The notes under the pieces are model-generated. The model was given only the letters and a program-made list of their open reading frames with translations, ran no database searches and was not told the DNA's origin. From Isoetes taiwanensis (Eukaryota; Streptophyta; Lycopodiopsida; Isoetales; Isoetaceae): a DNA stretch of 64,000 nucleotides. Both the position numbers and the translations under genes were made by a program. Positions 25,240 through 48,555 of this stretch are shown here, in pieces (positions within the stretch are counted from its first letter, which is position 1; each line of letters begins with the position of its first letter). The stretch covers positions 2,722,254 through 2,786,253 of the forward strand of contig JAJEKV010000052.1 of the NCBI GenBank assembly GCA_021234155.1, read 5' to 3'.

Positions 25240-25747
25240 GCTTTACTCAGTTCTCTAGTTATACTAGCGACCTTAATCCTGGTTACTTTCATATTTCAGG
25301 TGTAATCATTGTTTTATTAACGATATTGATGTTTGTATAGACTCGTAATGAGGATTTTGACACAAACAATCATTGGATAATGGAGCTAGTTTAGCTCAAA
25401 TACAACGAGAGCAGCATTTATAGCCTCTCTTTTGCAGGCAGACTAAAAGGTACATTCTTTTGTCATTTTCAAAAGAAAACAATTCTAGTGATAAGAGTAT
25501 GTTATTGGATTGTAGACCATGCTTGGGTTTTTGGATATAAGTTTTACCAAGCATGGTTGTAAATAATAAAAACGGATATAAAACCTTTTTTGCCATTGGG
25601 CTACTTGAGTATACAATTATAGGAGGGGTAGGGCCTTGTTGGTGCAACAAGGTCCTACTCTCCTTGTTGTCACCAATTTCAATGAAAAGCAAAACTGGTT
25701 TAAACACCACAAGGCCCCCTAACCTACGGAAGGAGGAAGGGTTTTTT
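25240..25747. other. spacer between the two 2.27-kb repeats
   Basis: Single-copy here. It has two short inverted repeats, ACCATGCTTGG/CCAAGCATGGT (25517-25556) and GCCTTGTTG/CAACAAGG (25633-25655). No gene. Confidence 0.5.
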
Positions 25748-28014
25748 ATTATAATGATTGATTTTCTCTTGGGTGCGTGTCCCTAGTGATTTGGTGGTAT
25801 AGGGATGTAGAGCATTTTGGCTTCATCAATGTAAGATTTTCCATGAAGATTGCTCAGACAAATGTACTCTATGGCCCATGGTTGGATTTAAAGTGGAAAA
25901 TGGTATGGGGCTTGCAAAAAAAAGGCAGGACACTATTGGAAATAAAGTTACGATGTACTTTACAGGGTTTTCAATTTGCATAAATCGTTTCTAGAAATTA
26001 TTTTGTGTGATCAATGCTTTGAATATTATATCTGGCTTTCCTAAAGAAAATGTGAAGGACTGTGCTCTTTGGCCATACTAATTTTGATGGCATGATAATT
26101 GTGCAACAATGGTTGAAGTTCTCCCGAAAGACGGGAATGATGGTGGTTTCTACATTTGTATACAGGGGTAAAGAAAAATACATTTGGTAAAAGAAAAAAC
26201 CTGTACAGAAAAAAGCCCTAATCCAGCTGTTGAACTAGGGTTTCGTGATCTGCCTTTTCATGGCTTGGTGGACACGAAAAGTGGTGAAGTGAATCGAATG
26301 CAATGCAGGTCTCCACATCGTTGAGAGTAATCCGGCGCTTTGGCATGAGACTGGATTTGCACATACAGACGGCAGTCAAGTTCCCATGTATAAATTCAAT
26401 TCGGAATGGCACAAGGAGAAATAAAAAGGCTGGATCTATGGCGGATTTGGATGAATGGAAGCAGATTATTAAATCTATTCTTCTGTCAAGGCTATAAGTG
26501 TTGCTGCTCAAGATAATGGCATGCAAAATCGATCACATCAGGTTCGAACGTTGTGTGTTTTGCATTGGTAGAATTTTGAGGATTAGACCATTTGTAAGAG
26601 GCAACATAAGTGCAAAAGAGCGGATATAATGGTAACACAGATTAGAAATTATGTTAATCTGTAGCTTTATCTCTAATATTCTTTGTTCTAAGAACTTAGA
26701 CTGGAAAGTAGCAGATCTGAGCATCTTTAGTGATCTAACCTCAAATACTTCTTGCACGGAATAATGAAAGAATAGAATTGATTTCATTTCGTGAACATTT
26801 TCAGTGCTACCGAGTTCTAGCTCTTAGTTAATGCTCTGTACATAAGAATGCCATGCAAGCAAAATATGCCTTGGGGCTTCTAGATCTAGATGTTTTTTGG
26901 AAAACATTACACAGATTTGTGAGCGCTAACTTGTTGCAAGCTAACTTGTGCTTTGTTGTTAAGTTTAGACATCTTGTAGCTTATTTATACACTGAGCTTG
27001 AACCTGAATATGGAAAGGGCATGTTCTCTGTAAATTATGAAAGGATCTAGTTAATATTAGTTTGAATTTAAGAGTAATTTTGAAAAAGCTCCCTGCATGC
27101 GATATTGGTCTTAGTTTGTGGGAAGTTCCCACTCGTATGCATGATGGCATATTAAGGGATTGAACTTCATTTTCTGAAAGCCATGACGAAGCAGATATTT
27201 TTGCATATATAGCTCCAGAAATTTGCTTATACTGCAAACGTATTTGCCTAAAATGCATTGTAGGATCCCTTTAGACTAAGGAAATGTAAATTAATTGATA
27301 TGCCGGTCTAGATCTGATGATTTTATCTTATCCAGCAGTCTATATGATATCTGAACAGGTTTTGCAGTAAAGAAAGAGTTAGATCATGAATATAATAGCA
27401 TCTGCAAGTTGTATGCAGTAAATTATAAATATCTATTTTGCGTTTCTGTTAACAAGCAAGGTGAAGGGCGAAGAGCCCAAGGAATCTAAGCTTACCTGCT
27501 AGTGCTTAGGGCTTTACCCCGATTAAGGCTAACAGTCCTCACGGTTTCTTTGCAGTAACGGATTCCTTGCTCCCCTCGGTGTTTTCACATATTGTTCTAT
27601 TTCATTTAGTGTGGAAGCTGATTCCATGACAAGATTGAACGTCAAGACAAAGATTTCATGACAAGATTGAATGTCAAGACAAAAGGATGTAAAAACAGGA
27701 TGTATTCTAAAACTTCTTGAATGTAAGATGAGCTGATTTTATTTGGAAATAGTAGAACAATTTGACTTGGTTAACTTTAGGCATTGGATCGTATGGACTT
27801 ACAGATTCTGTATAAACATATGGATAATTTACGATATGACATGGAATTGATTCTTTCTTGTATCTTTTGGATTAATTATTTGTAACCAGGTTGAGGCTTA
27901 GGTTGGCATGCACCTGTTCTAACCTAAGGCTGCTAATTGTACCTGAAAATGGTCTTTGAAAAAGTCCATTGAATGGTAAAAAGTCTGTTTAAAATGGATT
28001 TAAAGGTTTTTTTT
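25748..28014. repeat. 2.27-kb direct repeat, copy 2
   Basis: Second copy of 22970-25239. Its right end runs into a 22-bp T run (28007-28028), whereas copy 1 has a T run outside its left end. The paired T runs suggest they took part in the duplication. Confidence 0.9.
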
Positions 28015-28393
28015 TTTTTTTTTTTTTTGTTTTTGAGGGAATGAGATTTTTTCCATTAATTATAGATTAAAAAATACATAATATCCAAGTATTTGACCAA
28101 GGGAGATCAATATACTGGAACAAGTTTGAGCAAAACATAGAGTAAAGTCTGGAATTATCCAAGTGCATATCCAAAAATTAATAAACTGATATGCATTGTA
28201 AAACCAAATTATACTGATAATTCCTGATTTGAGAGTTTGAGAAAATAAAAGCTGGAAGTTAAAAACTGGAGTTCTGCTTCTTGACAGTCTGAAATATTTG
28301 AAAATCTTTGTAGCAGTATCACAGAGTCGCAATTACCTGAAAGATAAAGATGAAGAAGACAACACAATGGCAAGTTAAATGAGGAAACAGAAC

Positions 28394-28956
28394 CTATGGA
28401 TCAAGGAATGGGGAACGGTCAGAGAAAGCTGGCTTCAGGATAAAGTTGGTTTTCTTTCCCCAGTCCAAACACTCCAGCAAATCAGAAACACAGGAGGTGG
28501 CCATTAGGATAAGCAAGTTTCCATATGTATCTGCTTTACACCTGTGATAGTAGTAGCATTCCCTGTAGAAATTGAACTGTTTCTCTGTCACATGCATGCT
28601 GGTAGTTTCCATAAACCAGAATAATGTATACATCTGATAAGTACTCTTGCAGAACTCATAAGCCCACTGGATCTCAAAGATCGGAAATTCTTCAAGGCTT
28701 GGGAAGATTCTGTCATGAATTTTTGATTTCTAATAATAGTCCTGATGAGCATTCACCTGAGTCTTGATCTGACCTTTATACCTGATAGCTTCCTTAAAAG
28801 ATCAAAGCTAGTATCCAGATCCCTCTTGCAGAACTCCAGATATTCTAGACAATCATAATAATATCTTTGAAGAAGATACTGCAAAAGGTGTTTGTTGAAG
28901 TTGCATTTGCTTTTTATCTTTAAAGCAGGTACTGCAAAAGGTTTTTGTCGAAGCAA
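28394..28956 (-). CDS. unknown protein with YRECYYYHR motif, two last exons
   Basis: A likely exon from about 28884 (after TTTTGCAG) or 28956 to 28774 encodes YLLQRYYYDCLEYLEFCKRD and LRKLSGIK. A second, 28729-28394, encodes KSKIHDRIFPSLEEFPIFEI, then WAYEFCKSTYQMYTLFWFM, FNFYRECYYYHRCKADTYGN, and ends FSDRSPFLDP before TAG. The exons join in phase 0 (AAG|GTCAGA to TATTAG). I know no family with this motif. A related last segment occurs at 36110-36340 inside TE2, which suggests a transposon-associated gene. The ~370 bp downstream end in a T run, an A tail on this strand. Confidence 0.5.
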
Positions 28957-28999
28957 AGGGTGTTTATCGAATCACTACTTGCTCTTGAGGCAATAGCTG

Positions 29000-29614
29000 A
29001 AGCTTCCAGTTGAGAAAGGAAGGAATTTATGGTATATCGTGGTCTATTCACCTTAATTATTGTGCTTTAAAAAAGAAATTTGCAGGTTGTATGGCTGGAT
29101 ATTGCTATTATATTGCCGCATTGATTACAAAGTGGTTTTGCTCTGAATTAGGAAAAAAGGAGGTATGGCCTTGCCAATTTGACTCTCTTTTTTATTCTAT
29201 CTTTACGGTTGTTGAATTATGCAGATAGTATTTGAGTCTATAGAGCATAGATGCAAGTTCATAGAAGGGCATATTTAAGTCTTTCAGCTTTGATAGCTCT
29301 ATCCACTAGAAGAAATATATACCATATCTTTGTTTCTCGACATAATATTTTGGAGTGAACAGAAGTCCTTCGGGTCTAAGCACAATATTGGGGGGCAATT
29401 TTTTTGTCGCCGACATAGGGTGCTGGGGTGCTTTATGCCTTTTTTCCTAATTTTAGGGTCCATTAACGAAGAACAGCATCGAGCGCGAAAAAACTCGAGC
29501 AAATTAAGGAGAGATCGGTAGCCCGCCAAGAATCTCTTCCCAAAATGTGGCTATCCCTCCAAATTCCAGTTTGCATTTGTTGTATTTTCTTTCCTTCTTT
29601 TTTTTCAAGAACAG
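29000..29614. other. upstream flank of the TE1 transposase
   Basis: No gene. It should contain the left end and promoter of TE1, but I could not find an inverted repeat matching a right end. The GGGTGCTGGGGTGCTTTATG stretch near 29418 was tested by eye without success. Confidence 0.4.
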
Positions 29615-32600
29615 ATGGATTTGGTTGAGCGGTATGCTGCCGAATTTCAAGCAAAGTTTGGGGATTCAGATCCAGAACTTATAGCAAAAGAGCTGGGATT
29701 CGATCTTGAAGCTGATATACCAGAAATCTTGTTACCAGAAATTGAGGCATCGACTGTTGTGGTTGGAAAAGAATTTTCAATTTTAGGAGAGAAGCCTTCA
29801 GTTCTTCCTTGTGATAATGTAGTTTCCCCTGTAATTGCAAAAGAAAGTCCTGCTGGCCATAACTGTTGTCCATGTATTCAAGTGAAATGCAAATGTATCT
29901 CACCAAATACAACTTGCAGGAAAATAATGTCTGCCAAAAGAAGGATGCAGAGGAAAAGAAGAGCAGAAAGATTAGCACTTGAATCTGCATCCAGTCCTCA
30001 CAGATTGGCCACTCAAACCAAACAAAAGTTGGCAAAAGGTATTTTGGATAATATTTATAGTGTATGCAAGAATTTATTTCAAGATGATAGGGATGAAATC
30101 TTGGCAAGAACAGGTCAGGGATTGCCAGAAATTGGTATAATGGGACACAAGGAATTGTTTGCAGTTAGGCAAGTTGTTGATAATGTGAAGAGCAGTCTTC
30201 AAACTAACAAACTAAGAAGGAACCAGGATATGACACAAGCGAGGTCATCTACTCTAATAGCTGTTAATAATGCTAGCAATAAGTCTGGAGTTGCAAAGAC
30301 TTTAAACATAAAGAGAAGGACTGTGTATGCTGCTTTGGACAAGAGGAAAGCAGCTACAATTGGTGGGCCCTGGTCCATGTTTAAGAGAAAGGATAGAAGT
30401 GATAAGCTCTCTTTTAAAGATCGAGAGAAGATATATAGTTACTGGGTTTGTAACACAAGGGTATCTCCCAACAAGAAACAAGTTGTGAAGCTTAGGAGAA
30501 CCAATGAAGGAGTCAAGAATTTCAAGCCATATAGGTTGCATCCCATCCACTTTTTGGAAGAATCTCAGGTTAGTGAACTTTGATATTAGTTTTGAAGTTC
30601 CTAGTATTGTCAATTTACTGCTACATTTGAAGATTTGAAGTGCAAATGTTATAAAAGTTTTTTTGTGTTGGCTTGACGTGCAGGTTGTCTTCTACAAAAA
30701 GTTTCAGAAACAGAATCCTGACATCAAAGTAGGTTTGAGAAGGTTTGAGTGCTTGAAACCTTTGTTTGTTAGGAGACTAAAAGATCGTGAAACTTGCATG
30801 TGCATTTATCACATGAAGATGGAATTTGTGAGACATAGAAGAGACATAAACACACATGGAACAAATTGTAAGTGCAAGTGTTCAATTTGTGGTGCCGGAG
30901 ATCTTTGTGAAGCAAAGGAGAAGACTTTCAATAGTGTTAGTGAATTATGGAGGTCAACGGTATGTTCTAAGGCAGATGAGGATCTTTGGCACAAAGCAAA
31001 TTGTCTAAACTTGATTGCAGCTCATGTGGAATAAGAAAATTCAAAAGATGTCCAAGGGAGGAGAGCGCTATTCGGACAATCGATTGGAAGAACTTTGAGA
31101 TAGATAGATAGATAGATAGTAGTTTTAACGTCACGCCACTAGGCAGCATCCAACTGGACATGTGACCACACACCACACTACATTGCTTAGTTGGGCCCTG
31201 CCCCCAACCACCTTACATTGCGTCTGTTGGGATTTGACTCCCAACAGTACCGAGTGCATTTTTATTCAATATTTGAAATAACATGTAACTTATTTAAACT
31301 AAATCTGAAACTATGAATCTGAGACTGCTGCAGGTTAAAGAGACAATAAAAAGGAATGTGGGAAAGGATGGCTCCATCAAAACAACAACATTGAAAGAAT
31401 TCATGTCTCATGCTGAATCTGTCATGAAGCAGTTCATTTCACATAATTACACAGCTAGATGGCAAGCAGAACAATTTAAAAACTGTCTTCAAACATTTCC
31501 AAAAGGTACTGTGGTTTCTGTTATAGATTTTGCCGAGAATTTCTCCTTCAAAGTTCAACAGGAAATCCAAAGTATGCATTGGCATAATGACCAATGTTCC
31601 ATCCTAGTTCATATCACTTACAGACATGCCCAAGAATCTGAGATCCCACACATCAAGATTGGTGACAGAAAAATAGTGAAAGAGACACATTTCTACATAT
31701 CGGACGTATTTGTCCAGCATTGTTTGCAAAACCATCACGAGTTTTTGTTGAGCAGGGGAGTTAATTTGGCAAAACATGTGTTCTGGTCTGATGGATGTGC
31801 CTCCCAGTTCAAATCTTCTAGAGCTTTCTACTTCTTAGGAAGATTCTACAAGCTCAAGGGGATTAAGTTGCAGTGGAACTTTTTTGCCACATCACATGGT
31901 AAAGGGGAGCATGACGGGGCTGGAGCTGTCATCAAAAGAATATTGACGAGTGAAATGCTTAAAAGGGACAGCACAACCCTTAAGAAATTCTGAAGATGTT
32001 GTCAACTTTCTCAATTCTTATTTCAGCTGCAAACAAACTTCAAAGGAATGCAACATACAAAGGTATTAGTTTTATTCCATAGTGTTGAGTAATTTTATAT
32101 TGAAATTATTTCTTACACCCAAAACCGTTTATTTTAGGTTCTTCTGGCTTGTTAAGTTGGGTGATGTGAACAGATATTTGCCATATGAATGTGATACTTT
32201 AGCAGGTACAAAAAAGATTCACACAATTAGGCCTTACTGCCAAGGGGTGTAAATATGGTAATGCTACCCAAAAAAACGCGAAAGCACTTAGCACCTAAAG
32301 CACTTCCAAGCACTTAGCAACCCGTAGTTATACCTCCCACAATCTCGACCTCGGTTCCCGCGCGCACCTAGCTTCCAGGCACCTTCCTTTTTTTTTTTAT
32401 CCCAATTTGTGTTTCTTTTGCTCTGTTTTTCTCCCGCTCACATCATAGATCAATTATCCGGAACTTACATTCGTGAATCGATTACAATGGTAGAGGAGGC
32501 AGTTACAGCTGAGGATTTCGAAAGGATACACGGCCTTTCAAACCATGGTTTGCAGCCTCTGAGCATTCAATTGGGCGGCAAATAATGTTACACAAAACGA

Positions 32601-35600
32601 TGGGAATCGGTTGGCAAGAACCCCTCAATCCCAAGTCGAATTAAGGCACTAAAGTTGCTTTGCTATTCACCACATCCAAGGCCAAATTGGACGGTTTGTT
32701 AAGGATTCTTTATCCGGATGGGGTTTCAAACAATGAAGTCGGGGAAGCAATTTGCCCTTGCATTTGCTTGGGAAAATTGCCAAGAAGGTCTTGAAGATCC
32801 GAAGGCCATCAAATCAATTGGGCCGCATATGGTGCCGCAGTTATGGTTTACGGGCATAGCGGTAGAGAGTTCGGGTGTTAAAGAGAAACAAGAAATTGAT
32901 TCAAAGCCTGGGTTTGAGCAAAAGAGGTAGCAAGTAGTAAACTTGATCGGACAAACTTGAAACCGAATCTGCCAGATAGTGACAGAGAATCACGGAAAAA
33001 ACTTATGATCAAGAAAACTTCGGATGGAAAAAGAAATGCAGGATATAGTTGTTAGCCTGGCAGCTGAAGAAAAGTCAAATGACAAAATTTTTAAAAGGCT
33101 AACCGAAAAAAGACACAGCATGGAACAATTGAAATCACTGCTTGTTGAAAAGAGGGGCCTGTTCATGACACGGGAAGTAGAACGGAAATAAAGGAGTTGG
33201 AGAGAAAGTTAATGTTTGAGGAGTATCTTTGCGAGTCCATGGAGTCATTATGCACGGAGATCCGAGATCCGGATCTGATTTTGAAGAAGGGAAATTTGGA
33301 GGCGAGAATTAATTCAACCGGATGGTGACATCAAGGCAGCCAAGGAATATGCAAAAACCTTGACAAATCTAGGAGACATCAAGAATTCAACATTCTGCAT
33401 CAACACCATCAAGAGAAATCTTCCAGGTTTTTTACAAAATTTTTGTAATGCTTGTGGTTTGGGATTTCATGATAAGTACAAGCTTTCTTTAATTCTTGAT
33501 TGCTCACATGAATATCATGTGATGTGTGCTGCCTTGTTAAAGGAAGGCAAATGTTTGAAATGTGAATGCCTAGTTTATGTTGAGCTTGGCTTGAGCATTC
33601 TGTTGCTGATTGAGCGGGTTGCTTCCTTTGATCCTAGATTAAGTTTCAGGAAATCAGATTTGGGATCAAATACAGGTCGGGCAATTGAAGATGTAGTAGA
33701 TGTGCAATCTGACCAATTGAAGTCCCCTTCTACTAGCACGAAGAGAAGAAGGTTGAGACATGTCAGGGATGATTCTGATATTGAAACAGAGAATGTTCTG
33801 GGACAGGTGACCCCAATGCAGGTGACCCCAAGAAGTGGCAGTAAATTTCAGGAAGAAACAAAGGCTGCTTCAGATGAGGAGATTGAGTATGTCTTAGACA
33901 CTCCAACCAGGAAGAAGCAGAAGCAAGATCAAGAAGAAAAAGTCGATGTGGTTGTGAAGAAGACGGGGAAGGAAAAGAAGACATTGAATAAAGAAGAGAC
34001 TAGCAAAAGAAAGGAGGTGGCAAGGCCAAAGCAAAGATTCGGACCAAAGCCAAGGTTACTAGAAAGTATCCTTTGAGAGGGAGAGGTCAAAAGAATGATG
34101 GGAATGATGCGGGGCAAATGAACTTGCAAGGCAATGAAGAAGAGGTTGAGAAGGATGTCATGGACAACATAAACTCAACCCTTGCTGATATTGGTCAAGG
34201 TGGTTTGAAAGTTCAAAAGAAGTTCATGAAGAGCAGCCAAATACTAGAACCTGCACCAAATGTACAAGCCTGCGGACTATCTCGTACAAGATAAAGGTAC
34301 AAAACTTGCAGCAATCATTGAATCCATGAGGGGGAAAAACAACATCCCCTTGAGCAGAATAATTCATTCCTGATTGTTTAATTTGAATTCTTAAATTATT
34401 GTATTCATTATTTGAGTTGTCTTCTGTAATCTTCAGGGAGTGACCAAGTAGTCCAAAGTGATGAGGACTTAAATGTATCCCAATTAACTTCCAGGTCTTG
34501 TGCTTTTTTAATTTAATCTCAATATTTGTACTTGAATTTGGGTGTGTATTCACTTGATTAATGTTGTGAATGTTAGGTCCACTGAAGTACAAAGTGTAAA
34601 TGTAGCTTCAAGTTCCACTGCACTGCCAATTGTTATTAGGCAAAAGAGATTGCTGATTCTAGATCTTAATGGCGTTCTCGTGAAGAGCTTTAGAAGAAGC
34701 AATCAATTGAGGGATGATCTTAAAAAGATAAACCCTCAATTATTAAAATCATCAACAACTAACAAAGTAGTTGTATTCAGGACGGGAGTACATGCTTTCT
34801 TGGAGGAAGCATCTTCTTGGTATGACTTAGCCATTTGGTCCTTTATGAACAGTTTAATGTTCATGAGGTGCTTGATGTCCTATGTCCCCGCTAAGAAAGA
34901 CAAATTCATCTTCATTTGGGACCCGAGTTTACGTGATGAGATGCCTTTCAAGTATCCTTTGGAGTATTCTAATCCTATTTTTATGAAGCCACTCCATAAG
35001 GTATATGCACGACTTTCCACGAGTATGGCGAAAATGTAATTATTGCGGATGATGAGGTTTACAAGGCATTTACGTCCCCCCATTTACTTCCATCATGGTG
35101 CCTACTTTCACCGTCGATAACCCGATGAAATTACGGATGTTTATTTGCTTCCAATACTTAGGCGGGTGTCACGTCTTTGAAAGATACTTTAGGTGTCTTC
35201 AAGAATAACACTAGAGCGAAATGTTATACAAGTATTTCCACAGGTGTTCTTGAAGAATTATTCCAGCAGGACATTGGAGCAGATAAGAAACTGCTGGTCA
35301 AAGCATACTGCAAGGGCCAGATTCAGTGGTTAGTTGATGCACATCGAAATGTCTTCAGTGCAGACCAGTTGGTTCATCTACAGAAGTTTTTAGATTCCTG
35401 ATCCTGGTATAAACTTTGTAAATTGCCTCAATTTTGTTACATAGAGGCATGTAACTATGTGAGTGCAGATTTGCCTCCATTTTGTACAGATACTATGAGA
35501 GTGCAGATTTGCCTCCATTTTGTAACTACACAAGAATTTTGTACCATCTTGCAATGTAATATATCTTCATTCTCTTTCATTATGTGTTCTCGTATGAATT

Positions 35601-38600
35601 TTCTTGAAATTGCAAAGTTAACTGTGCAGATGTTATGCTTTCCCAATTCAAGAAAAAATAGTTTAGACTATAAGACTCCTTACAGCCACAACCCAAACCT
35701 TTTGCAAATGATTTTAATCTTGGCAGGAACTCAAAGGAGTTGAGAAGATGTGGATTGAATTTGGACTGAAGTATTGCATCAGACCTTGTTCATATTGATG
35801 ACACTGACCAGGTCAAAATTTGGTCAATGTCCCTGGCCGAAGTCAATTTTTTGCAGACATGTCTAAGCTGGGAATTTTTGGACTCTGAATAAAAGCAAGA
35901 TATGTAGAACTAATTTGAAAAGTAATCAAATGCTGAAGAACAAATGTGAACAGTAATCAAATGCTGTGGTGCACAGATAATTGAAAAAAAGAGAAATTTT
36001 TCACATTAATAACACAATAGCCTGCAGGCTCGAATTTAAAAGACATCTGAGCCTGCAAAATTACAAAATTGGAGCAAAATTACAAAAAGGATGAAGATGG
36101 ATGGCCTACTCAAAATTGGTAGGTGTCTAAGTACTTGAAGTCTTCAAAGAAATCAGGCTGGATTATTGTCAGCCTGCTTGGCTGATTCCACCATTCAACA
36201 CTGTCAATGAGGTACTCAGGATTGCAGGTTGCCATATTTAGCAGAATCAAATTACCATAAGCATCTGCCTGACCTCTATGATAGTAATAGCATTCTCTGT
36301 AATGATCAAACTGAGCAGAAGTCATGTGTTTTGTCATCACTAATATAGAAATGAGTCTCCTTCACAATACCTTTGAGAGTTTGTTTTCTCTTCTCCTTGG
36401 CCGAGTCCTTGTTCTTCTTGTTCAAGCTCTCTTCCTCTCTCTTCCTTCTTTCTTCTTCTTCTTCTTTCTTCATCCTCCTGTAAGTAATATGCACTAGAAT
36501 TGACACCTGATCAAGTATGCCAATGGCGATTGAGCTTCTGTTGGATCTTAAATCCGTAATTTTTACGCAAAAAGTCTATGACGTAAACAATAGTATCATC
36601 TCGTATGGTTGCCAAGCATTTCTTGAATTCCTTAGCTTGCCAATGAGCTTTATAATTATGTGGAACAAAAGACTTCATAGTCTTTTTGCATGCTCATTAA
36701 ATTCAAAAGGATTTGCCGCCTTGTAGGCCAATCTAGTAACCTTTGCGGGTTTTCTTAGATAGCTTGGCGAGATTCTTTCTTTGGACTTCTTCTGGCGGCA
36801 GTTCAATGTCAAATGATTAGCTCAACTCCTAAAAAGTAATATGCTTGAATTTGATAGTTAGTACCTTTTCAAATACTTTCCATTGGACATTGATAGACTT
36901 TTGCTTGTTCCTCTCTTTAGGACATGTTGGCAACCTGCAATACAAAAACAATAATGGCAGATGTATCAGTTACAGTAACTTTTCCAATTCAAGAAAAAAC
37001 AGTCTAGACTCTAAGACTCCTTACAGCCACAACCTAATGGTTTTGCAAATGATTTTAATCTTGGCATGAACTCAAAGGGGCTGAGAATATGTGGATTCAG
37101 TCTGGACTGAAGTCTTGCATCAGAGCTTGTTGAAAATGATCACACTGGCCGGGTCAAGAATTGGTCAATGTCCCTGGCAGAATCCAAGATTTTGCACATC
37201 ACTCTAATAGGATAATTTTGGAATTCTATCACCGGATTAGACTCGACAACTCAGAGAATACCGCAAACCTTAGTGCTTCAAATAAAAAGCAAGGCACAAT
37301 GTGATTTAGTTCTGAGACTTAGTTATTTCAAGGTAGCAGACTTTGAAATTTCAGAGAACATAAATCTGCAGGCATGAACACTCAATCTTTCCTGTGTTTG
37401 AGTGAAGCTGAGCATTCCTATCAAGCAGGGACACTCACATACAACCTGGACAAGATGACTATGTTGAGGAAAAGATGACCAAGACTATCAGACAGGAAAC
37501 AGGTTTAGATTAGATACTACTTAAAAGTAATGTACAAGCAAAAGGAAACCATACTTACTTCTTTAACCCACACTTTGTACAAGTCTGCATAAAACACACG
37601 TGCTTATGCCACTCTTCACTCTCATCCTTTTGGCACACCACCATTTTCCAATAATCACTAGTTGATTTAATGGTGTTCTCCTTGGCCATACAGATCTGAC
37701 CTGGGCCACAAACTTTGCACTTACATTTACATTCCTTGTGAACACCATGAGGATCTGTCCTCATATTATTGATGGCCTGCCTTACAAATTCTAAATGCAA
37801 ATGGTATTGGCAAAAGAACAGTCTCCCTTTCTTTTAATTTTCTAATGTAGCTTGGCTTCGGTTTCTAAAGCCTCTTTGGGACATCTTCATATCCGGATGT
37901 TCCTTCTTGAAACCAAGATATAGTTGAACCCCGCACAATGAAAAAAAATTTAGTTACTTTCTAAACAAAAAAGAAAGAAAGAAAGCATTCAAAATGTATG
38001 GTCGAAACTATACACGTGTCATCTCTAGCGGATGAATAGGATGATCAATTTTCTCACCTTTATCATTCAAATGCTTCCTCACATGCTTCTTATAAGGTGA
38101 TACTCGGTATTTTCATCCCAATACTTCTCCGACTGTGGCTATTTCTTCAGTTTGTGAAGGCATCTTTTCTTCTCTTCCTTCCAAACATTGACCGGGGGCC
38201 GCCAGTGATTCTCGCAAAAATTGCCTTCTAAATGCCATGGCAAATTTTTAGTGGAATAGATAGAACCCTTGAAATTGCAGATTGATTGATCCCCAGGCCC
38301 AACAGTTGCCATTTGTAGAGTGCTCTTTCTTGCTTGCAAAATATCGCTTTTCTTTGCATTTTTTGGACCTGCATTGTCTCTGGACATTGGAAATCATGGT
38401 ATCGCGTTCTGACCCGGGTTCTTGGGATCTGGTAATTCTCCTTGCAATGGTAAATGTGTATTTTTCTTCAAAAGTCTTTGAAGAATTCTCCCTTTGTCTA
38501 AATCCTCTGAAACATTCCTCACAATGTGATTAAAAGAGTCAGTTAGCTCTTTTGACAGCTCTTGCAACCTTCTATCACTGAGAAAATGTTTTCTCTTCTT

Positions 38601-40320
38601 CTCATTTGGTGCAATGTTTTCTTTTTCCTTTAGTTTCAATCTCTTTCTGGATTCTCTCTTCCTCTTGGCTTCAAAATCCAGATAAATTCATTAGAGGAAA
38701 AATGAGATCACATTTTGTCCCATTAAGGAATGCTTAAAATGCCATGTCAGCTTTTTAAATTGTCCAATAAGAGAAGAGCTCCAGTATATCTCATTCCAGT
38801 ATTATGTGGCAGCCTGTAATTAATGCAGTTGCAACTAACTTCTGGGTAAGAGCATGTTAGGGCCTACATGTTTTGGAAACTACCTGGAAAATACTCTGGG
38901 TAGTCAAAGATGATGATATATTTGAGTTCTTAACATCTTCTTGACATCACAAAGTACCTTACAACATGTATATACTACTACTCTTGAATATAACACAATT
39001 TCTTTTGGTCAATCTTGTAGTCTAGGTACTTTAAAATACAATTATGTACTTGCACAGAAGTACACAGAAAAGTACCTTTTTGGTAATTTTTTATGTAGGC
39101 CCTAACATGCTTTCACCCTTCTGTAGTATCATTTTTTCATTATAACTTTTGATCCAGAACTCCGATTCAAAAACTTTTTGTAGCAATGGGTTCGTCTTCA
39201 CAAGATCTATCTAGTGATAACCCATTCATACATCTTTTACGATATAAATATATAAGAAATAAGCAAAAAATCATATTTTTTTAAGGTTAACGCATATGAC
39301 CATATTGAAATACATCATAACCATATATCATTGGAAAGATCTTTTCATTCCGCATCTAATGCAACTAACGCTGCAACATTTTGACGAGTGGATCAAAAGT
39401 TATGGGGGAAAAACAACAACAATGAAGTTGTTGGTGCTGCATTAATTGCAGTTAATAGAGGGTAGCCATTCTATTGGAGGATTCTTATGGGGATGAAATG
39501 AGATCTCAAATTTCCTCTAATGCTCCTTTCCTGATCATCAATGCTCTCGGAATTAGAATTGGGATTGGCATTCGGATTGAGAATTGCAAGTGAATTATCA
39601 GCCATGAGAACAGATCAAAGATTGAATTGGATTGGAATTGAAGACAGCCAGGAAAATCTCGTTACAGGAAATCTTCGAAAGAATGACAACCAAGAATTTC
39701 CCTCCAAGAATCCGGCCATCTAGAAATCCCGCCAAACATGAAAATTCATCTCCCAATTTGCGCGGGATCATCCATGTCATCGATCCCTACCTCCACGGGA
39801 TGATCCGTTCTATTTCTGGAGTAATCATCAAACGATGTCGTTGAACGAAAAAGCACTCGAGGGTAAAGCACCTAAAGCACTTACAGCACTTGTCCGGATA
39901 GTGCTCTTTGGGTAGCATTACCATATTTACACCCCAAGACAGGCCAACTGAAATGGCACATAGGCATCTATCATGCTTTTGCAGATTTTGTTGGAGAGAA
40001 TTATGGTATAAATGTAGACATGCATCTCGGCTTGGAGATTATTCATTGTCAACCCTGATTCCTATGGTTTTCGAGCAGGAATCTCTTGTCCACCATGTAC
40101 AGTATGAGGGGGACAATCAATGGAAAGCAGAAATGGTTGAAGTAGGTGATAACTTTGTTGTGAATGCAGAGGAAGGAAATGATGAGAATGTGGATTTCTG
40201 GATAATCAAGTGCACTGAACCTAAACACATTGTCCAAAGATGCATTTAAGGACTATTGGGGCTCTAAGTTCAACAGCAGGAGGTTGTCTTATCGTAAGTA
40301 TTACAAGTTCATCAAGATGG
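29615..40320 (+). CDS. TE1 DDE-type transposase, multi-exon, interrupted by TE2
   Basis: Exon 1 (29615-30568, 318 codons) has a Cys cluster (CCPCIQVKCKC), a basic region and a helix-turn-helix-like segment (GVAKTLNIKRRTVYAAL). Exon 2 starts at 30684 and has a zinc-binding CKCKCSICGAG motif. Exon 3 starts at 31334 and carries the core: VVSVIDFAENF, HFYISD, FWSDGCASQF and NFFATSHGKGEHDGAG, candidates for the catalytic acidic triad. Exon 4 starts at 32138 (FFWLVKLGDVN), is cut by TE2 at 32244 and resumes at 39939 in the same frame. Frame breaks occur near 31013, 31985 and 40245. It resembles unnamed transposases of plants and invertebrates; I could not name the superfamily with certainty. Confidence 0.8.
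31083..31300 (-). mobile_element. candidate SINE with (GATA)n tail in a TE1 intron
   Basis: Between exons 2 and 3 of TE1 lies a run of GATA units (31083-31106) followed by TTTTAACGTCACG and about 190 bp of sequence richer in GC. This mirrors the 49 and 52 kb LINE ends, where a simple repeat precedes TTTTATCGTCCACGG. A GTTGGGAGTCAAATCCCAAC hairpin near the far end loosely resembles a tRNA T-arm. A short retroposon sharing a LINE-type tail is the likeliest reading. Confidence 0.4.
32245..32272 (+). repeat. TE2 left terminal inverted repeat
   Basis: 28 bp identical to the reverse complement of 39907-39934. It is followed by AAGCACTTAGCACC-type subterminal repeats. Confidence 0.95.
32487..33350 (+). 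pseudogene. TE2 cargo, N-terminal coiled-coil region, decayed
   Basis: A start at 32487 gives MVEEAVTAEDFERIHGLSNH before a stop. Further segments in changing frames include DGLLRILYPDGVSNNEVGEA (about 32690) and a charged, helical stretch (IVVSLAAEEKSNDKIFKRLT, near 33040, and LMFEEYLCESMESLCTEIRD, near 33210). The last flows into the RING-finger frame as DIKAAKEYAKTLTNLGDIKN. Several frame changes show this part is broken, though it looks like one original protein. Coiled coil ahead of a RING finger is common in E3 ligases. Confidence 0.5.
33360..34294 (+). CDS. TE2 cargo: RING-H2 finger protein with basic, nuclear-type tail
   Basis: 238 codons to 34076, continuing in the next frame to 34294. 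Residues 29-70 fit RING-H2 spacing: C-x2-C, 15 residues, C-x-H-x2-H-x2-C, 8 residues, C-x2-C (CNAC, then CSHEYHVMC, then CLKC). RING-H2 domains usually act as ubiquitin E3 ligases. The rest is low complexity with nuclear-type clusters (STKRRRLRHVRDDSD, PTRKKQKQ) and, past the frame change, an AT-hook-like PLRGRGQ. The start is probably not the true N terminus, because the upstream sequence continues the protein in another frame. It is convergent to the TE2 transposase. Confidence 0.6.
34577..35401 (+). CDS. TE2 cargo: FCP1/NIF-like HAD-family domain protein
   Basis: After a GAATGTTAG acceptor, the frame to 35037 carries HAD motif I as LLILDLNGVLV, with Asn where the catalytic second Asp of DxDG would be, as in some plant FCP1-like proteins. 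It continues VVVFRTGVHAFLEEASSWYD, LAIWSFMNS (motif II region), KFIFIWDPS and MKPLHKV (motif III Lys). A neighbouring frame continues with ENVIIADDEVYKAF, the motif IV acidic pair, and 35177-35401 gives a plausible C terminus (DTLGVFKNNTRAKC to LQKFLDS). FCP1/NIF phosphatases act on serine residues such as those of the RNA polymerase II tail. Frame changes at about 35010 and 35150 make this copy defective. It may be the C-terminal part of the same cargo protein as the RING finger. Confidence 0.65.
35405..35530. repeat. short tandem repeat (GTGCAGATTTGCCTCCATTTTGTA)
   Basis: Two good copies and one weaker copy of a ~45-bp unit centred on TTGCCTCCATTTTGTA lie just downstream of the HAD-domain stop. 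Confidence 0.55.
35641..35870. repeat. ~225-bp direct repeat inside TE2, copy 1
   Basis: It matches 36975-37199 in the same orientation at roughly 85% identity, beginning CCAATTCAAGAAAAA and ending near GTCAATGTCCCTGGC and the following TTTTGCA motif. It lies between the two convergent genes. Confidence 0.7.
36110..36340 (-). CDS. TE2 segment with YRECYYYHR motif
   Basis: The frame reads FDHYRECYYYHRGQADAYGN, then LILLNMATC, and ends FKYLDTYQF. It aligns with the last exon at 28394-28729 over the motif and the following ~35 residues. It directly abuts the transposase sequence ending ISDDKTHDFCS, which looks like a deletion junction because the WSDG and GKGEHDG core of TE1 is missing in between. 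Unknown family. Confidence 0.5.
   Translation of the reverse strand: MMTKHMTSAQFDHYRECYYYHRGQADAYGNLILLNMATCNPEYLIDSVEWWNQPSRLTIIQPDFFEDFKYLDTYQF
36975..37199. repeat. ~225-bp direct repeat inside TE2, copy 2
   Basis: Partner of 35641-35870. It sits in what should be an intron of the minus-strand transposase. Confidence 0.7.
38689..39522. mobile_element. 834-bp inverted-repeat element inserted in the TE2 transposase gene
   Basis: The ends are inverted repeats: CATTAGAGGAAA on the left and its complement TTTCCTCTAATG on the right, with weaker pairing for another ~100 bp. TA next to GAGGAAA on both sides would suit a Tc1/mariner-like (Stowaway) target, but the surrounding symmetry leaves the exact boundary open. 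It separates the transposase start (MADNSLAIL) from DFEAKRKRES; omitting it leaves an open frame across the junction. No coding capacity. Confidence 0.65.
38852..39110. mobile_element. 259-bp MITE-like element nested in the 834-bp element
   Basis: Perfect 18-bp terminal inverted repeats, GCATGTTAGGGCCTACAT at 38852-38869 and its complement at 39093-39110, bound an AT-rich interior. Target duplication not resolved. Confidence 0.65.
39907..39934 (-). repeat. TE2 right terminal inverted repeat
   Basis: 28 bp, perfect partner of 32245-32272. AAAGCACC and AAGCACTT motifs lie just inside (39852-39890). Confidence 0.95.
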
Positions 40321-40324
40321 TAAG

Positions 40325-41236
40325 TATGAGTCGTTAGACAATATGCCCCGATGTAACTTGCTATACACACCTTGTAGTTTGTGCAAAGGTTAAATTGCGT
40401 GTCGCACATGGTGAGAAGGGTGAGTTCTCGCCTCTCGGGCGATGCACATGAGCAGATTATTGAGTATTTGCCTCCTCCCTCATCCGGGGCACTCAACGCC
40501 CTAGTAGTAGACGGAGAAGGATTGATGCAGTGAAGTGAATCCATGCATAAATGTTAATATAACATTTTAAATTTGGGCATGTAACAGCCTTGTAAACTTG
40601 GGCATGTAACTTGTTCATGTGTTGTTTCAGACATTTTCTTCTATCAGTAGTAACAGAACCATATTGTAACCATTGGTTCAACCATATTGTAACCATATTG
40701 TCAACAAAATTCAAAGTGTTTTAATATCAAGTGTCTTCTTTCTCTTGTTTTTCTTGTTGGGTGCCCGGATTGTCAACTGCCTGTATGGAACAGCTGTTCA
40801 ATGAATTGAACAAGTGTTTAAGTAATGAAGTTTTACAAGTAAACAAGTCCATTATTTCCTATCATATTTGATCACTTGTATAATGTTTAAGTGTGTTGGT
40901 AGATAATGTTTAAGTGTCTTCATTATTTCATGAAGTGATGATGCTTAAATATTTCGAGTTCAATAACTTTTGCTTTTGTATTGAGTTTAATAAGTTGTGT
41001 GTTTAGAAACAGTTCATAACTTGTAAACAAGTATTGAGTTCAATAAGTTCAATAACTTGTAAACAGTTCAATAACTTGTAAACAGTTCATAACTTGTAAA
41101 CTTGTATTGAGTTCAATAAGTTCTTTGTGTTTGTAATTTAAACAGTTCATAACTTGTGTACTTGTGTTCAATATTCAGTAAAGTTTTAATTGCATTTTCA
41201 AAGTGTTCAATTCAGTATTTGTCTGGTCTCGTGTTT
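40325..41236. repeat. AT-rich tract with GTTCAATAACTTGTAAACA minisatellite
   Basis: About 40990-41165 repeats GTTCAATAA-CTTGTAAACA in imperfect copies. The rest is AT-rich and non-coding, lying between the TE1 transposase end and the convergent gene. Confidence 0.55.
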
Positions 41237-41471
41237 CAAGTATTCCATTGTAAACAAGTATTGAAGTATTCAAGTATTGCTAACCCTCAAAATTTCAGTA
41301 CATTTAACCTGTTGCAAACCACATTTTCATGAAGAAGACTGCTCACAATTTGCTAAAGCTCAAATATTCCATTGTAAACAAGTATTGAAGTATTCAAGCA
41401 TTGCTAACCCTCTGAGTTTCAGTACATTTAACCTGTTGCAAACCACATATTCATGAAAAAAAATGCTCACA
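41237..41471. repeat. ~117-bp tandem duplication
   Basis: 41237-41351 and 41357-41471 are near-identical neighbours (TATTCCATTGTAAACAAG to TGCTCACAA). Downstream flank of the minus-strand gene. Confidence 0.75.
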
Positions 41472-41515
41472 AATTTGACAACCATAAATATTTCATTCAT
41501 TTGGAAGGCATTTAC

Positions 41516-43862
41516 ATTGTGAGAGGTTCAATCTTTCTGCCTTTACAAAATAGGCAGTACAAAATCATTGACATAGTGTCAATGGATTGACATACATCCT
41601 GTACAAAATAAACATTGTAGTTCATGTCATTTGAAAAGGGATCTTCACTCTGCATAATAGAAACATGAAACTGAATTAACATACACATAGATGTAGTTGC
41701 AAGATCAATAAGTTACAAACCTGGCAAGTGTAAAGAGATCTTATGTTTAACAAACTGTTCCAGTGTCATGGCTTCTTCATCACTGTCATCATCACGAGCA
41801 TCAGCATCTTTGGCAGCAACAGATGGAATTGAAGATACCGCAACTTGGACAGAACAGAAGAGATGGAATTGAGGTGCTTTGAGTCGAAGGGGCTTCAACT
41901 AATGGTATTACAACTTCAAGAGGAACATGAGGAGATTCAAATGAAGGAGCCCACTATAGGTACATTGGCTTCCACCGTCTTTGAAAATAAAGGAGCTAGA
42001 ACTAGAGGTGCTGCAGCGATTCTGGGGCTTCAAAAAGGTGCCGGAACTAGAGGTGCTGCTAGCTTCTGTGGGCTTCAAAAAGTGCTTTGGAACTAGAGGT
42101 GCTTTCGCGCAGCTGGGGGCTTCAAAAGGTACCGAGCTACGGGGGCATCAAAGAATTGAAGGTTGTATAGCAGCAATTGTAGATGCTGCTGGTTCAAACC
42201 ACAAATTTGCAATCTGGCTAGAGTTGAAGGACTCACAGCTTGGTTGCTTAAAGTATCATCTAACAGCAGAAAATGATAATTAGTATCTGCAATTTAAAAA
42301 CACATCATTCTTTGAAATGAAATGTAGCACATGTATACCTGTGGGAGCATCCTGTTGTAGGTTATTCTTAGGATCCTTTGGTGTATTCTCCCCACATTTT
42401 TTTTGGTAACCACTGGCTGCTTACCTTTTGGTCCAGCCTTCTTTGTACTCTTTGGCTTATCTGTAAGGTAAGTAAGTTAAAAATACAAACATAAAAGACA
42501 TTATTTTATAGCTAGAACACTCACTAGAAACTGCAGATACATGCTCACGTGCATTCCATTTACTAGGTCTACCTTTACGAACATTACGGAGTTTCTTTTG
42601 TCCATCTTCTTCTGCAATTGGTAAGGATTCTATTACTATTGGTGCAGGTTCAGCCTCAGAAATCCCTGGACCTGTTTGATCCTTAGCAGCTACAACATTA
42701 GCATTATGCATATGCAAGTTGCCCCACTCCATAAATGTTAGACAACTTCGTTTTAACTTTTCATATGCATATACAAGTTACACCAGAAGTGAAGCAACCA
42801 AATAGGGTCTTTCCTTTAGACAACCTATCTATGATTTCAAAGAAATATAATTGCTTTATTATCCTTTAGGCCTTTGCCAATTATAAGCATGTTCATTTTG
42901 TTATAGCAGTTAGGACAATGGAACATTTTATAACTTATGCAGCACCCCATGAACAACTGCTTTATTGTTCTGTAGGCCTTCTGCCAATGATAAGCATGTT
43001 CGTTTTGTTATAGCAGATTAAGGCGATGGAATGTTTTATAACTTAAGCAGCACTCCATGAACAACTGCATTAACTTTCAAAGACTCGAGAACAAAGCGCA
43101 TTAACAACGAGACTCTAGGAAGAATTGCATTAACTGTCATGAAAAGGCCAATCATGTTTCTTTGTTAATCAATTGGAGAGAAAAAACATTTGAAAATTCT
43201 CTTTTGCTAATCAATTGGAGAGGAAAAACATTTTGCATAAGCAAAAATGTGAAAAACAACTCTAATAACTTTTTTATAGTAGTTGGCTATGCAAATCCTA
43301 TAGTGGGATGCTTATGCAAGTACTGTCGTACATGCTAGGCCAATACAGATGTAGCATATACGAGTGCTTATGCAAGACCTGTCTTACATGCTAGGCCAAC
43401 ATAGATGTAACCAATATGAGAATTGTGCAAATACAAGGGGAGTTTGCTAGCAAGACAACAACGAAAAGAATGGTGCCCAGCAACGCTGGGCACTGTAACT
43501 AGTAAAACTCTAAGATTTTATCAAATAGATGATCCAAATTAATTTTGATGTCGATCGGACGGCCCAAAACTTTGAGGACCTCAGGGTGTTAAGGATACAA
43601 GAAACCCCTAGATTTTAAAGTTCAGAGTCTAATTGTCAAGGTAAATAGGCCAATACGTCATGAAAATATTTCAATTGAAAAGCTAGGAGGAAGAGATATT
43701 TACCTTTTGTTGTTGTACCGGATGTGTTGCATTGCTACACATCCGACCACTAGTAGAAGCAAACTCGGTTGTGAACATGGTGACTATGAGCTTTGCGGCA
43801 AGTAAACAACGCCACTTACTTTATGCGCGCAGTTTTGCTTCCATGTGAGTTTTCCAGCATCG
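41516..43862 (-). CDS. predicted multi-exon gene of unknown function, convergent to the TE1 transposase
   Basis: Likely exons on the minus strand are as follows. About 43862-43803 gives MKLQKADAGKLTWKQNCAHK with an AAA|GTAAGT donor. About 42693-42529 gives SEAEPAPIVIESLPIAEEDG and the AT-hook-like RNVRKGRPSKWNAREHV with a GTGAGT donor. About 42460-42340 is Lys-rich (NKPKSTKKAGPK). 41843-41721 gives ADARDDDSDEEAMTLEQFV. About 41642-41516 gives VYFVQDVCQSIDTMSMILYC and LFCKGRKIEPLTM before TAA. A Pro/Ala/Ser repeat region lies at 41850-42150. The charged, AT-hook-like make-up suggests a nuclear protein. Its position mirrors the TE2 cargo relative to its transposase. Exon links are inferred, not proven. 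Confidence 0.4.
41985..42135. repeat. ~45-bp minisatellite (ACTAGAGGTGCTGC...GGGCTTCAAAAAG)
   Basis: Three to four imperfect units of about 42-48 bp. On the minus strand they would encode Ala/Pro/Ser-rich repeats such as APLVPAPF. Confidence 0.6.
42853..43067. repeat. ~105-bp tandem duplication
   Basis: Two adjacent copies share TGCTTTATT, the GGCCTT-TGCCAAT block, ATAAGCATGTTC and TTTTATAACTTA. Probably intronic or upstream of the minus-strand gene. Confidence 0.65.
43473..43502 (+). mobile_element. Helitron-type 3' end
   Basis: A perfect 9-bp hairpin, GTGCCCAGC-AAC-GCTGGGCAC (43473-43493), is followed by TGTAA and CTAGT. This is the classic Helitron terminus: a GC-rich hairpin a few bases before CTRR, then the host T (43503). 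The 5' TC end and any Rep/helicase gene were not identified, so the left limit is unknown. Confidence 0.6.
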
Positions 43863-43869
43863 GCTTTCT

Positions 43870-44690
43870 GCAGTTTCATTGATTTAGGTTTGTGAATTCT
43901 ATAGGATACTAAAAATAGGAGACAATTTTTGATGTTGCATTTCTTGGCTGTTTTTGCAATTAATAGATTCTTGGAAGGAGCCATTCCGGGGGCTGACTGA
44001 TTCGAACGTCTTGTATATCGCCAAGTAAGTATTATATCTATTCTACACGAATTTTTTCTTTGGTGCATTGTCTTGGAGTTTGAACTTTACTCTGATCCTT
44101 GATCTCTAGCATCACAAGGATAAAGCCCGATAATGTGTTTCTTGCTTCGCAAACAGGTAATAATGAGTTTGATTCAATAATACAGAAATAGAGGATCATT
44201 AGATAGTATCGAATAAAGATAGCATGGGGACAAATGCGCAGATAGATTTGGAGATTTGAGGTGATAAGAACTGGCAGATGTGAAACACGATTCTCGTGTG
44301 TTGCTCTCTTAGCATTCTTAGAATTCTTCACTAACAATTCGGCTTATCTGCTGTAGTGCACCATGTTGAGCCATAATCTGCATTGCAAGGACTTAAGTCC
44401 GTGATCAGACACTTCTCATTTGTCTCATTTTGTCTGGTAGAACCGTCCATTTTCCACATTAAAAATAAGAGATGTTTTTTAGGTGATGCTCTAAATTTAA
44501 GCTATAGGATAAAAGGAAGTGATGGACTATCATTTGTAGAGGATTACTCTTATTCAATATTCCAGAAGAAGTAGAGACATAGATGTAGAGACATGAATAA
44601 AATCTCAGTAGACAAAGATAATCCACTGAGTGCAGCCACCTGTCTATGCATAAGATAAGATACCCAAATATTCCTCAAAAATCAAATGTT
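43870..44690. other. no gene recognised
   Basis: AT-rich flank between the predicted minus-strand gene and LINE copy B. It may contain the TE1 right end, which I could not define. Confidence 0.4.
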
Positions 44691-44695
44691 TTTTC

Positions 44696-46725: not shown

Positions 46726-46729
46726 GTGT

Positions 46730-48375: not shown

Positions 48376-48555
48376 GGCCATAGCCTGGCATTTTTTTTAG
48401 GGAGGATCGATCTTAGTGGTTTTTAAAAGATCCACTTGGTAGTTTTTCCTCCAGTTTTCCCTTGGCATGAGATGCATAAGGTCGCGGCCTACTTGTAGGA
48501 TCTTTTAAAAACCACTAAGATCGATCCTCCCTAAAAAAAATGCCAGGCTATGGCC
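48376..48555. repeat. perfect 58-bp inverted repeat with 64-bp loop
   Basis: The left arm 48376-48433 (GGCCATAGCCTGGCA to AAAAGATCC) and right arm 48498-48555 are exact reverse complements. The transcript would form a 58-bp perfect duplex. No transposase, clear target duplication or gene is attached. Possible origins are a recent fold-back MITE, a young small-RNA hairpin locus or an assembly artefact. Confidence 0.95.

What the first reader, a model, noticed from the sequence alone, without database searches (positions are those of the whole stretch)
32245..39934. DNA transposon carrying RING-H2 and FCP1/NIF-like cargo convergent to its transposase
TE2 holds, on the strand opposite its transposase, coding sequence for a coiled coil, a canonical RING-H2 finger, a basic nuclear tail and a HAD/FCP1-like domain. 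I know no described plant transposon with this pair. A ubiquitin-ligase-like and CTD-phosphatase-like accessory protein could help the element manage transcription or silencing. This is the best candidate here for an undescribed system.
Basis: partly seen in the sequence, partly recalled or inferred. Interest (0 to 1): 0.88.

Follow-up and report, generated by a model that had tools for sequence, protein, structure and literature searches.

The report
Transposon clan carrying ubiquitin-ligase-like helper gene
A jumping gene of a quillwort carries, facing its own transposase gene, an extra gene that joins a RING-H2 (ubiquitin-ligase-type) finger to a phosphatase-like domain, and a distantly related jumping gene in the same genome keeps the same pair, so it looks like a lasting helper gene of unknown but testable function.

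Summary
TE2 (32245-39934) is a DNA transposon with 28-bp inverted repeats and a 4-bp target duplication; the genome is, by size, Isoetes taiwanensis. Opposite the transposase lies a probably spliced gene: N-terminal domain, coiled coil, RING-H2, basic tail, NIF/HAD domain (nearest solved structure UBLCP1). The window copy is defective (about 2.1 kb of transposase missing, 834-bp element nested). The cargo is not a one-off capture: 14 of 15 TIR-to-TIR copies hold RING and NIF, and a deeply diverged family read at one locus (L045; NIF 32%, RING 48% identical) has the same layout. In that lineage 60 of 150 listed NIF places have a convergent transposase 393-888 bp away (0.02 expected). RING ligands and HAD motifs are kept, with motif I as DxN, suggesting a pseudo-phosphatase. 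Against: dN/dS within TE2 is about 1; none of 89 TE1-like transposases lies near a listed NIF (capped lists); other species were not testable. The duplication length fits Sola; transposase homology was untestable. Best reading: a conserved accessory gene, probably a nuclear E3-type adaptor acting on silencing or on the transposase; the function is inferred.

The parts
32241..32244 (.). left copy of the 4-bp target-site duplication CAAG (right copy 39935-39938)
   Evidence: 4-bp match in 15 of 15 elements with both TIRs, 5-bp in 0 of 15
32245..32272 (+). left terminal inverted repeat, 28 bp
   Evidence: 438 exact 25-mers genome-wide, reversed control 0
32487..33383 (+). cargo gene, N-terminal domain and coiled coil (ATG of the reading at 32487; coiled-coil part matched at 32745-33365)
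   Evidence: ORFs of the aligned copies, ATG position; 41-residue block in L045 at 41% identity
33444..33563 (+). RING-H2 finger of the cargo protein
   Evidence: ligand spacing; all 8 ligands kept in L045; zf-RING_2 weak hit on L045, E 6.8e-4, below the curated cut-off; no hit for the window ORF
33564..34291 (+). basic, Ser/Lys-rich tail after the RING
   Evidence: tblastn of the family reading; no Pfam domain
34437..34494 (+). small inferred exon (acceptor ..CTTCAG before, donor GT after; next acceptor ..GTTAG before 34577)
   Evidence: motifs read from the sequence; kept exactly in 12 of 20, 13 of 21 and 10 of 21 copies. No transcript evidence
34577..35401 (+). NIF/HAD (FCP1-SCP-UBLCP1 type) exon; motif I LDLNGV 34659-34676, motif II IWS 34833-34844, motif III K 34983-35000; frameshifted in this copy
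   Evidence: PF03031 E 1.3e-8; unbroken 287-residue stop-to-stop frame in sister copy L021; alignment with L045
36158..36325 (-). fragment of a further ORF ('TpC3') of the element, fused to the transposase by the deletion in this copy
   Evidence: full-length copies carry about 2.1 kb more here
36321..36693 (-). transposase catalytic region, N-terminal half only; the stretch with FWSDGC..HGKGEHDG is missing from this copy
   Evidence: TpDDE coverage 0.40, TpC 0 in the window copy
37593..37953 (-). transposase exon with CxCxC zinc-ligand-like cluster
38152..38687 (-). transposase N-terminal exon with HTH-like segment (by eye; continues 39519-39614 beyond the nested element)
38689..39522 (.). 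nested 834-bp element with 39-nt imperfect inverted ends
   Evidence: I2; absent from the 14 sister copies that align across this point
39907..39934 (-). right terminal inverted repeat
29900..32236 (+). TE1, related transposase gene into which TE2 inserted (continues 39943-40234)

Best explanation
TE2 belongs to a large group of Sola-like (4-bp TSD) DNA transposons in Isoetes that carry a second gene convergent to the transposase. Shown or strongly indicated: its parts are an N-terminal domain, a coiled coil, a RING-H2 finger, a basic tail and a NIF/HAD domain; this order is kept in two deeply diverged lineages, so it is a maintained accessory gene and not a passenger. Inferred: one spliced mRNA and one nuclear protein. 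Inferred mechanism: the RING recruits an E2, and the HAD domain, whose motif I is D-x-N in both lineages (general-acid Asp lost), mostly binds a phosphorylated nuclear partner instead of dephosphorylating it. The protein then ubiquitinates that partner, most likely a host silencing or transcription factor, giving the element cis or trans protection from silencing, or it tunes the transposase.
For: 14 of 15 TIR-to-TIR copies hold RING+NIF. L045 has the same architecture at 32% (NIF), 48% (RING) and 35-53% by segment (transposase) identity, with all 8 RING ligands and HAD motifs I-IV kept in position. 60 of 150 L045-like NIF places have a convergent transposase 393-888 bp downstream, 0 in any other arrangement within 6 kb, 0.02 expected under uniform placing. 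53 of 150 RING places lie upstream of a listed NIF (union of 264) on the same strand; 28 full RING-NIF-transposase triples. Codon-position identity NIF L021 v L045 46/59/34% over 188 codons. 17 of 59 divergent NIF copies are stop-free (29%) where a neutral model gives 4-13% for no stop and at most 2.1% for no stop and no frameshift. No in-frame Met lies between the inferred acceptor and motif I in TE2, which favours splicing from upstream exons. Precedents: VANC/KIU Ulp1 antisilencing (PMC13317346, passages) and KolobokP with an accessory nuclease on the complementary strand (PMC9587614, passages).
Against: No direct evidence of expression, splicing, E3 activity or target. dN/dS within the TE2 family is about 1 (shared variants: NIF 0.80, RING 0.42 on 22 variants, coiled coil 1.36, basic 1.33; wrong frames scatter as widely). 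TE1-like transposases: 0 of 89 lie within 6 kb of a listed NIF. Only one diverged locus (L045) was read in full; the rest is coordinates from capped lists. The 59 rows (the rows with identity at most 80% and at least 180 aligned residues, read off by hand) come from a score-ranked list, which favours stop-free copies. L045's own transposase is broken. Pfam support for the RING is below the curated cut-off.
Confidence: 0.45

Rival explanations
1. Transposition cofactor: the second protein works in the transposition reaction itself (binding subterminal repeats or the transposase, like CACTA TnpA or MuDR MURB, recalled), the RING being a zinc-bound protein or DNA contact and the HAD domain a scaffold.
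For: Fixed convergent two-gene layout, as in KolobokP (passages); coiled coil and basic tail; DxN in place of DxD argues against a working phosphatase.
Against: RING-H2 spacing and all ligands are canonical, and zf-RING_2 is the best Pfam hit of L045, though below cut-off; TE1-like elements seem to do without the gene (capped lists).
Confidence: 0.25
2. Active CTD/UBLCP1-type phosphatase: the HAD domain still dephosphorylates Pol II CTD or the transposase, with RING-directed turnover as a second function.
For: Motifs II-IV and the nucleophile Asp kept; nearest solved relatives are the phosphatases UBLCP1 (E 4.4e-10) and CTDNEP1 (1.9e-3).
Against: Second motif I Asp is Asn in both lineages; that this cripples SCP-type enzymes is recalled, not tested.
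Confidence: 0.15
3. Passenger host-gene capture: host RING and NIF fragments were captured once in an ancestor, amplified with the element, and have no function for it.
For: dN/dS about 1 within TE2; NIF-type genes are plentiful here (33 of 150 listed places score 142 bits or more); plant elements often capture genes (PMC13317346, passages).
Against: Shared order across lineages at 32-48% identity with ligands kept, stop-free divergent copies, 28 triples.
Confidence: 0.12

Closest known systems
Sola DNA transposons (Repbase superfamily)
   Same: 4-bp TSD, mostly 2-9 kb and variable TIRs as described in PMC10741241 (passages), which names the moss Physcomitrella as a plant host; Sola2 elements with an extra Fanzor1 protein exist (PMC3627910, passages)
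   Different: No Sola transposase sequence was held, so homology was not tested; no RING/NIF gene is mentioned in the passages seen
KolobokP (PMC9587614, passages)
   Same: DDD/E transposase with an accessory gene downstream on the complementary strand; lineage-specific accessory proteins within one superfamily
   Different: Accessory is a His-Me nuclease; Kolobok TSD is TTAA, here the 4-bp TSD varies
VANDAL VANC / KIU MULEs with Ulp1 domain (PMC13317346, passages)
   Same: Plant DNA transposon lineage keeping an accessory gene with a ubiquitin-like-pathway domain, linked to escape from silencing
   Different: Ulp1 protease domain (of the SUMO path, recalled), not RING; non-TIR MULEs; hypomethylation is reported there, only inferred here
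UBLCP1 / dullard (SCP) phosphatases
   Same: HAD family by sequence (PF03031, TIGR02251)
   Different: Motif I DxN in place of DxD; far below the TIGR02251 cut-off (39.1 of 139 bits); beside or fused to RING-H2

Membership tests
TIR DNA transposon | terminal inverted repeats plus constant-length TSD | tested here: met
   28-bp TIR, 4-bp TSD in 15 of 15
TIR DNA transposon | transposase with acidic catalytic residues | tested here: inconclusive
   Invariant DGC, SQFK and HGKGEH blocks across TE1, TE2 and L045; no Pfam match above cut-off; AlphaFold model useless, pLDDT 34
Sola superfamily | 4-bp TSD | tested here: met
   definition from passages
Sola superfamily | Sola-type transposase by sequence | not testable with these tools
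   no reference Sola protein was at hand
Kolobok | TTAA TSD | tested here: not met
   TSDs vary: TGCG, CAAT, CTAT, TTTG and others; definition from passages
RING-H2 finger | C3H2C3 ligand order and spacing | tested here: met
   the pattern itself is recalled
RING-H2 finger | Pfam RING model above cut-off | tested here: not met
   L045 zf-RING_2 20.3 of 27.3 bits; the TE2 ORF had no hit at E 0.1
RING-type E3 ligase | E2-dependent ubiquitin transfer | not testable with these tools
   needs an assay
NIF/HAD phosphatase family | PF03031 above cut-off | tested here: met
   TE2 35.2 and L045 73.7 bits against 21.8
NIF/HAD phosphatase family | catalytic DxD motif I | tested here: not met
   DxN in TE2 and L045
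Gene-capture element (Pack-MULE-like) | cargo sporadic among long copies | tested here: not met
   14 of 15 TIR-to-TIR copies and the L045 lineage keep it; the ~0.27 and ~1.7 kb derivatives are too short for it

The most novel reading that the evidence does not exclude
A plant DNA-transposon lineage has kept its own nuclear ubiquitin-ligase-type protein, whose substrate arm is a phosphatase turned phospho-reader, to destroy or block host silencing or transcription-control factors: a ubiquitin-based counterpart of VANC antisilencing, spread over hundreds and perhaps thousands of places in one lycophyte genome.
Probability: 0.28. Interest if true: 0.88.

Novelty: new variant of a known kind. Interest (0 to 1): 0.72.

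Why it matters
Accessory genes kept by eukaryotic DNA transposons (VANC, the Kolobok accessories) reveal how elements manage host silencing or the transposition reaction. A RING-H2 plus HAD gene kept across diverged lineages in a lycophyte would be a new accessory type, would make a ubiquitin-based element strategy directly testable, and could explain why NIF-type sequences are so numerous in this genome (3261 loose first-look candidates, of which 150 were scored and listed). It also warns that such genes may be annotated as host genes: the published Isoetes repeat library removed repeats matching plant proteins (PMC8566536, passage).

Tried and rejected

Viral and prokaryote collections: no relatives of the transposase or of the L045 NIF in viral contigs, none of the window NIF in phages. 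The one bacterial hit (Thiothrix) lies opposite a 654-residue ORF that looks like an acetyl-CoA synthetase (name recalled) and was rejected as chance.

AlphaFold of the TE1 transposase core, folded without an alignment, gave pLDDT 34, so no fold search was run. PDB sequence searches with the short window NIF and the TE1 core found nothing. A cargo in TE1 was looked for in window 39943-47000 and 24001-30000 and not found (best NIF match there E 0.42).

Paper searches for NIF or CTD phosphatase with transposons (listings only) gave no description of this pair; a search for lycophyte DNA transposons (listing only) gave nothing that settles the family. The library lacks most subscription papers, so absence from print is not shown.

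Full report
What was checked. The finding names a DNA transposon at 32245-39934 with a RING-H2 and FCP1/NIF-like cargo opposite its transposase. Both boundaries are exact: 28-bp inverted repeats flanked by a 4-bp duplication, CAAG; 15 of 15 elements with both ends show a 4-bp duplication and none a 5-bp one. The 25-bp terminus occurs 438 times in the genome, the reversed pattern never. Among the first 100 of these 438 places, 31 facing pairs lie less than 30 kb apart: 5 at 271-282 bp, 16 at 1607-1718 bp, 5 at 8938-9185 bp and 5 others at 6.0-26.7 kb, as expected for an autonomous element with short derivatives too short to hold the genes.

Host. The window lies in an assembly of 1,658,258,908 bases in 1110 contigs. 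The published Isoetes taiwanensis assembly has 1658.30 Mb in 204 scaffolds and 909 contigs (PMC8566536, passages). The identification is an inference from size.

Anatomy. Of 20 fetched stretches with TE2 relatives plus the window, 15 hold both termini; 10 of these 15 are 8.5-9.2 kb long, the window copy 7.7 kb. Left to right on the plus strand: an N-terminal domain, coiled coil, RING-H2, basic tail, one small inferred exon, then the NIF exon; the transposase runs the other way. The window copy lacks about 2.1 kb inside the transposase and has an 834-bp nested element. TE2 sits inside the transposase gene of a relative, TE1, about 55% identical in the catalytic region. Sister copy L021 has an unbroken 287-residue NIF frame.

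Frameshifts. Of 128 alignment positions with indels in at least four copies, 70 (55%) touch a CHG-type trinucleotide against 11.5% of tested positions; homopolymers are not enriched (7.8% vs 8.0%). The assembly used Nanopore reads, polished with racon and pilon (passages), so I read many frameshifts as base-calling errors at methylated CHG sites that survive polishing in repeats. That is inference, and it would imply that the copies are methylated.

Is the cargo conserved? Within TE2, yes by presence: 14 of 15 TIR-to-TIR copies hold RING and NIF sequence; L017 has lost both with most of the element, and L026 holds 88% of each. By substitution pattern, no: for shared variants omega is 0.80 in NIF, 0.42 in RING (15 N, 7 S), 1.36 in the coiled coil, 1.33 in the basic part, and 0.35 to 1.71 over five transposase blocks (0.98 in the main one); wrong frames scatter as widely. 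The family looks like a recent burst followed by neutral decay, so it cannot show selection.

Between lineages the answer differs. Pfam NIF finds 3261 loose first-look candidates, of which 150 were scored and listed; of these 150 places 33 score 142 bits or more, while 101 score 61-85 bits and lie on many contigs. One of these 101, read in full as L045, carries the same layout: N-terminal block 41% identical over 41 residues, RING 48%, NIF 32% over 183 residues, convergent transposase 35-53% by segment. All eight RING ligands are kept, and so are HAD motifs II (S), III (K) and IV (DD); motif I reads DLNGV or DVNGV, Asn replacing the second Asp. NIF codon positions agree at 46, 59 and 34% over 188 codons.

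Linkage was then tested with coordinates only. Of 150 listed L045-like NIF places, 60 have a transposase place from another 150-row list 393-888 bp downstream on the opposite strand, none in another arrangement within 6 kb, 0.02 pairs expected under uniform placing. Of 150 RING places, 53 lie within 8 kb upstream of a NIF on the same strand (264 NIF places, union), 45 of the 54 pairs at 1.2-1.6 kb, with one pair in another orientation; 53 have an opposite-strand transposase downstream within 8 kb, with two pairs otherwise placed; 28 loci show all three in order. All lists are capped, so these are lower bounds. For TE2 itself 18 pairs of NIF (40 places) and transposase N-terminus (40 places) fall within 12 kb in the expected order. 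Two NIF places that are not among the rows listed have the exact TE2 terminus 2.4-2.6 kb upstream (C133, C908, which used 100 of 438 termini).

Stop-free copies: of the 59 rows with identity of at most 80% and at least 180 aligned residues, read off by hand, 17 have no stop. A neutral model with only half the divergence on the copy's branch gives 4-13% for no stop and at most 2.1% for no stop and no frameshift. The list is ranked by score, which favours intact copies, and frameshifts were not seen directly, so this is supporting evidence only.

Results against. Of transposases 65% or more identical to TE1, 0 of 89 have a listed NIF within 6 kb, and nothing like the cargo lies beside TE1 in the window; the lists are capped, so absence is not proven. 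L045's transposase is broken. No other plant species could be searched. Nothing here shows expression.

What the domains are. NIF: PF03031 35.2 bits (TE2) and 73.7 bits (L045) against a cut-off of 21.8; NCBIfam's best is the dullard-like TIGR02251, far under its cut-off; a three-sequence profile of the TE proteins hits UBLCP1 (E 4.4e-10; the match starts after motif I) and CTDNEP1 (1.9e-3) among solved structures. RING: canonical ligands, Pfam support weak. The transposase has no Pfam match above cut-off.

Which element family. Sola elements make 4-bp TSDs, are mostly 2-9 kb and occur in a moss (PMC10741241, passages), and Sola2 elements with an extra Fanzor1 protein are described (PMC3627910, passages). 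TE2 fits these features; transposase homology was not testable, so I write Sola-like. Kolobok is excluded by its TTAA TSD (passages). The nearest parallel in layout is KolobokP, accessory gene on the complementary strand; the nearest parallel in proposed role is VANC with Ulp1 in VANDAL/KIU elements (PMC13317346, passages).

How it probably works. Shown: a conserved gene module convergent to the transposase. Inferred: one nuclear protein; RING-driven ubiquitination; a HAD domain that binds rather than dephosphorylates; a target in silencing or transcription, or the transposase itself. I give the module being a maintained accessory gene about 0.88 and this particular mechanism about 0.35; the field value 0.45 is for the whole statement.

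Noticed in passing
TE2 alignment, whole element: Single-base indels cluster at CHG trinucleotides (70 of 128 hot sites vs 11.5% background), suggesting methylation-linked Nanopore errors; frameshifts in this assembly's repeats should not be taken at face value.
   Followed up: yes
36158-36325 (-) in TE2; 28460-28624 (-) near TE1: A further ORF (..FDHYRECYYYHRGQADAYGNL..) lies after the transposase on its strand in TE2 but upstream and on the opposite strand of TE1's transposase; no match in the 8.2 kb of L045. A possible third gene of the group.
   Followed up: partly
38689-39522: 834-bp nested element with 39-nt imperfect inverted ends (82%) and a second inner inverted pair; absent from the 14 sister copies that align across the point.
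   Followed up: partly
35638-35886 and 36979-37227: Direct repeat of 249 nt, 83% identical, at two places inside TE2; unexplained.
   Followed up: no
genome, G000:C47:217907-239635: Four TE2 transposase places and three exact ends lie within about 22 kb of one contig, a cluster of copies.
   Followed up: no
genome, G000:C1018:22.9-26.8 Mb: Twelve strong NIF places (142-172 bits) in two groups, probably host phosphatase genes expanded locally.
   Followed up: no
45866-46693 (-): ORFs that look like a LINE-type reverse transcriptase (by eye).
   Followed up: no
48376-48555: Perfect 58-nt inverted repeat with a 64-nt spacer.
   Followed up: no
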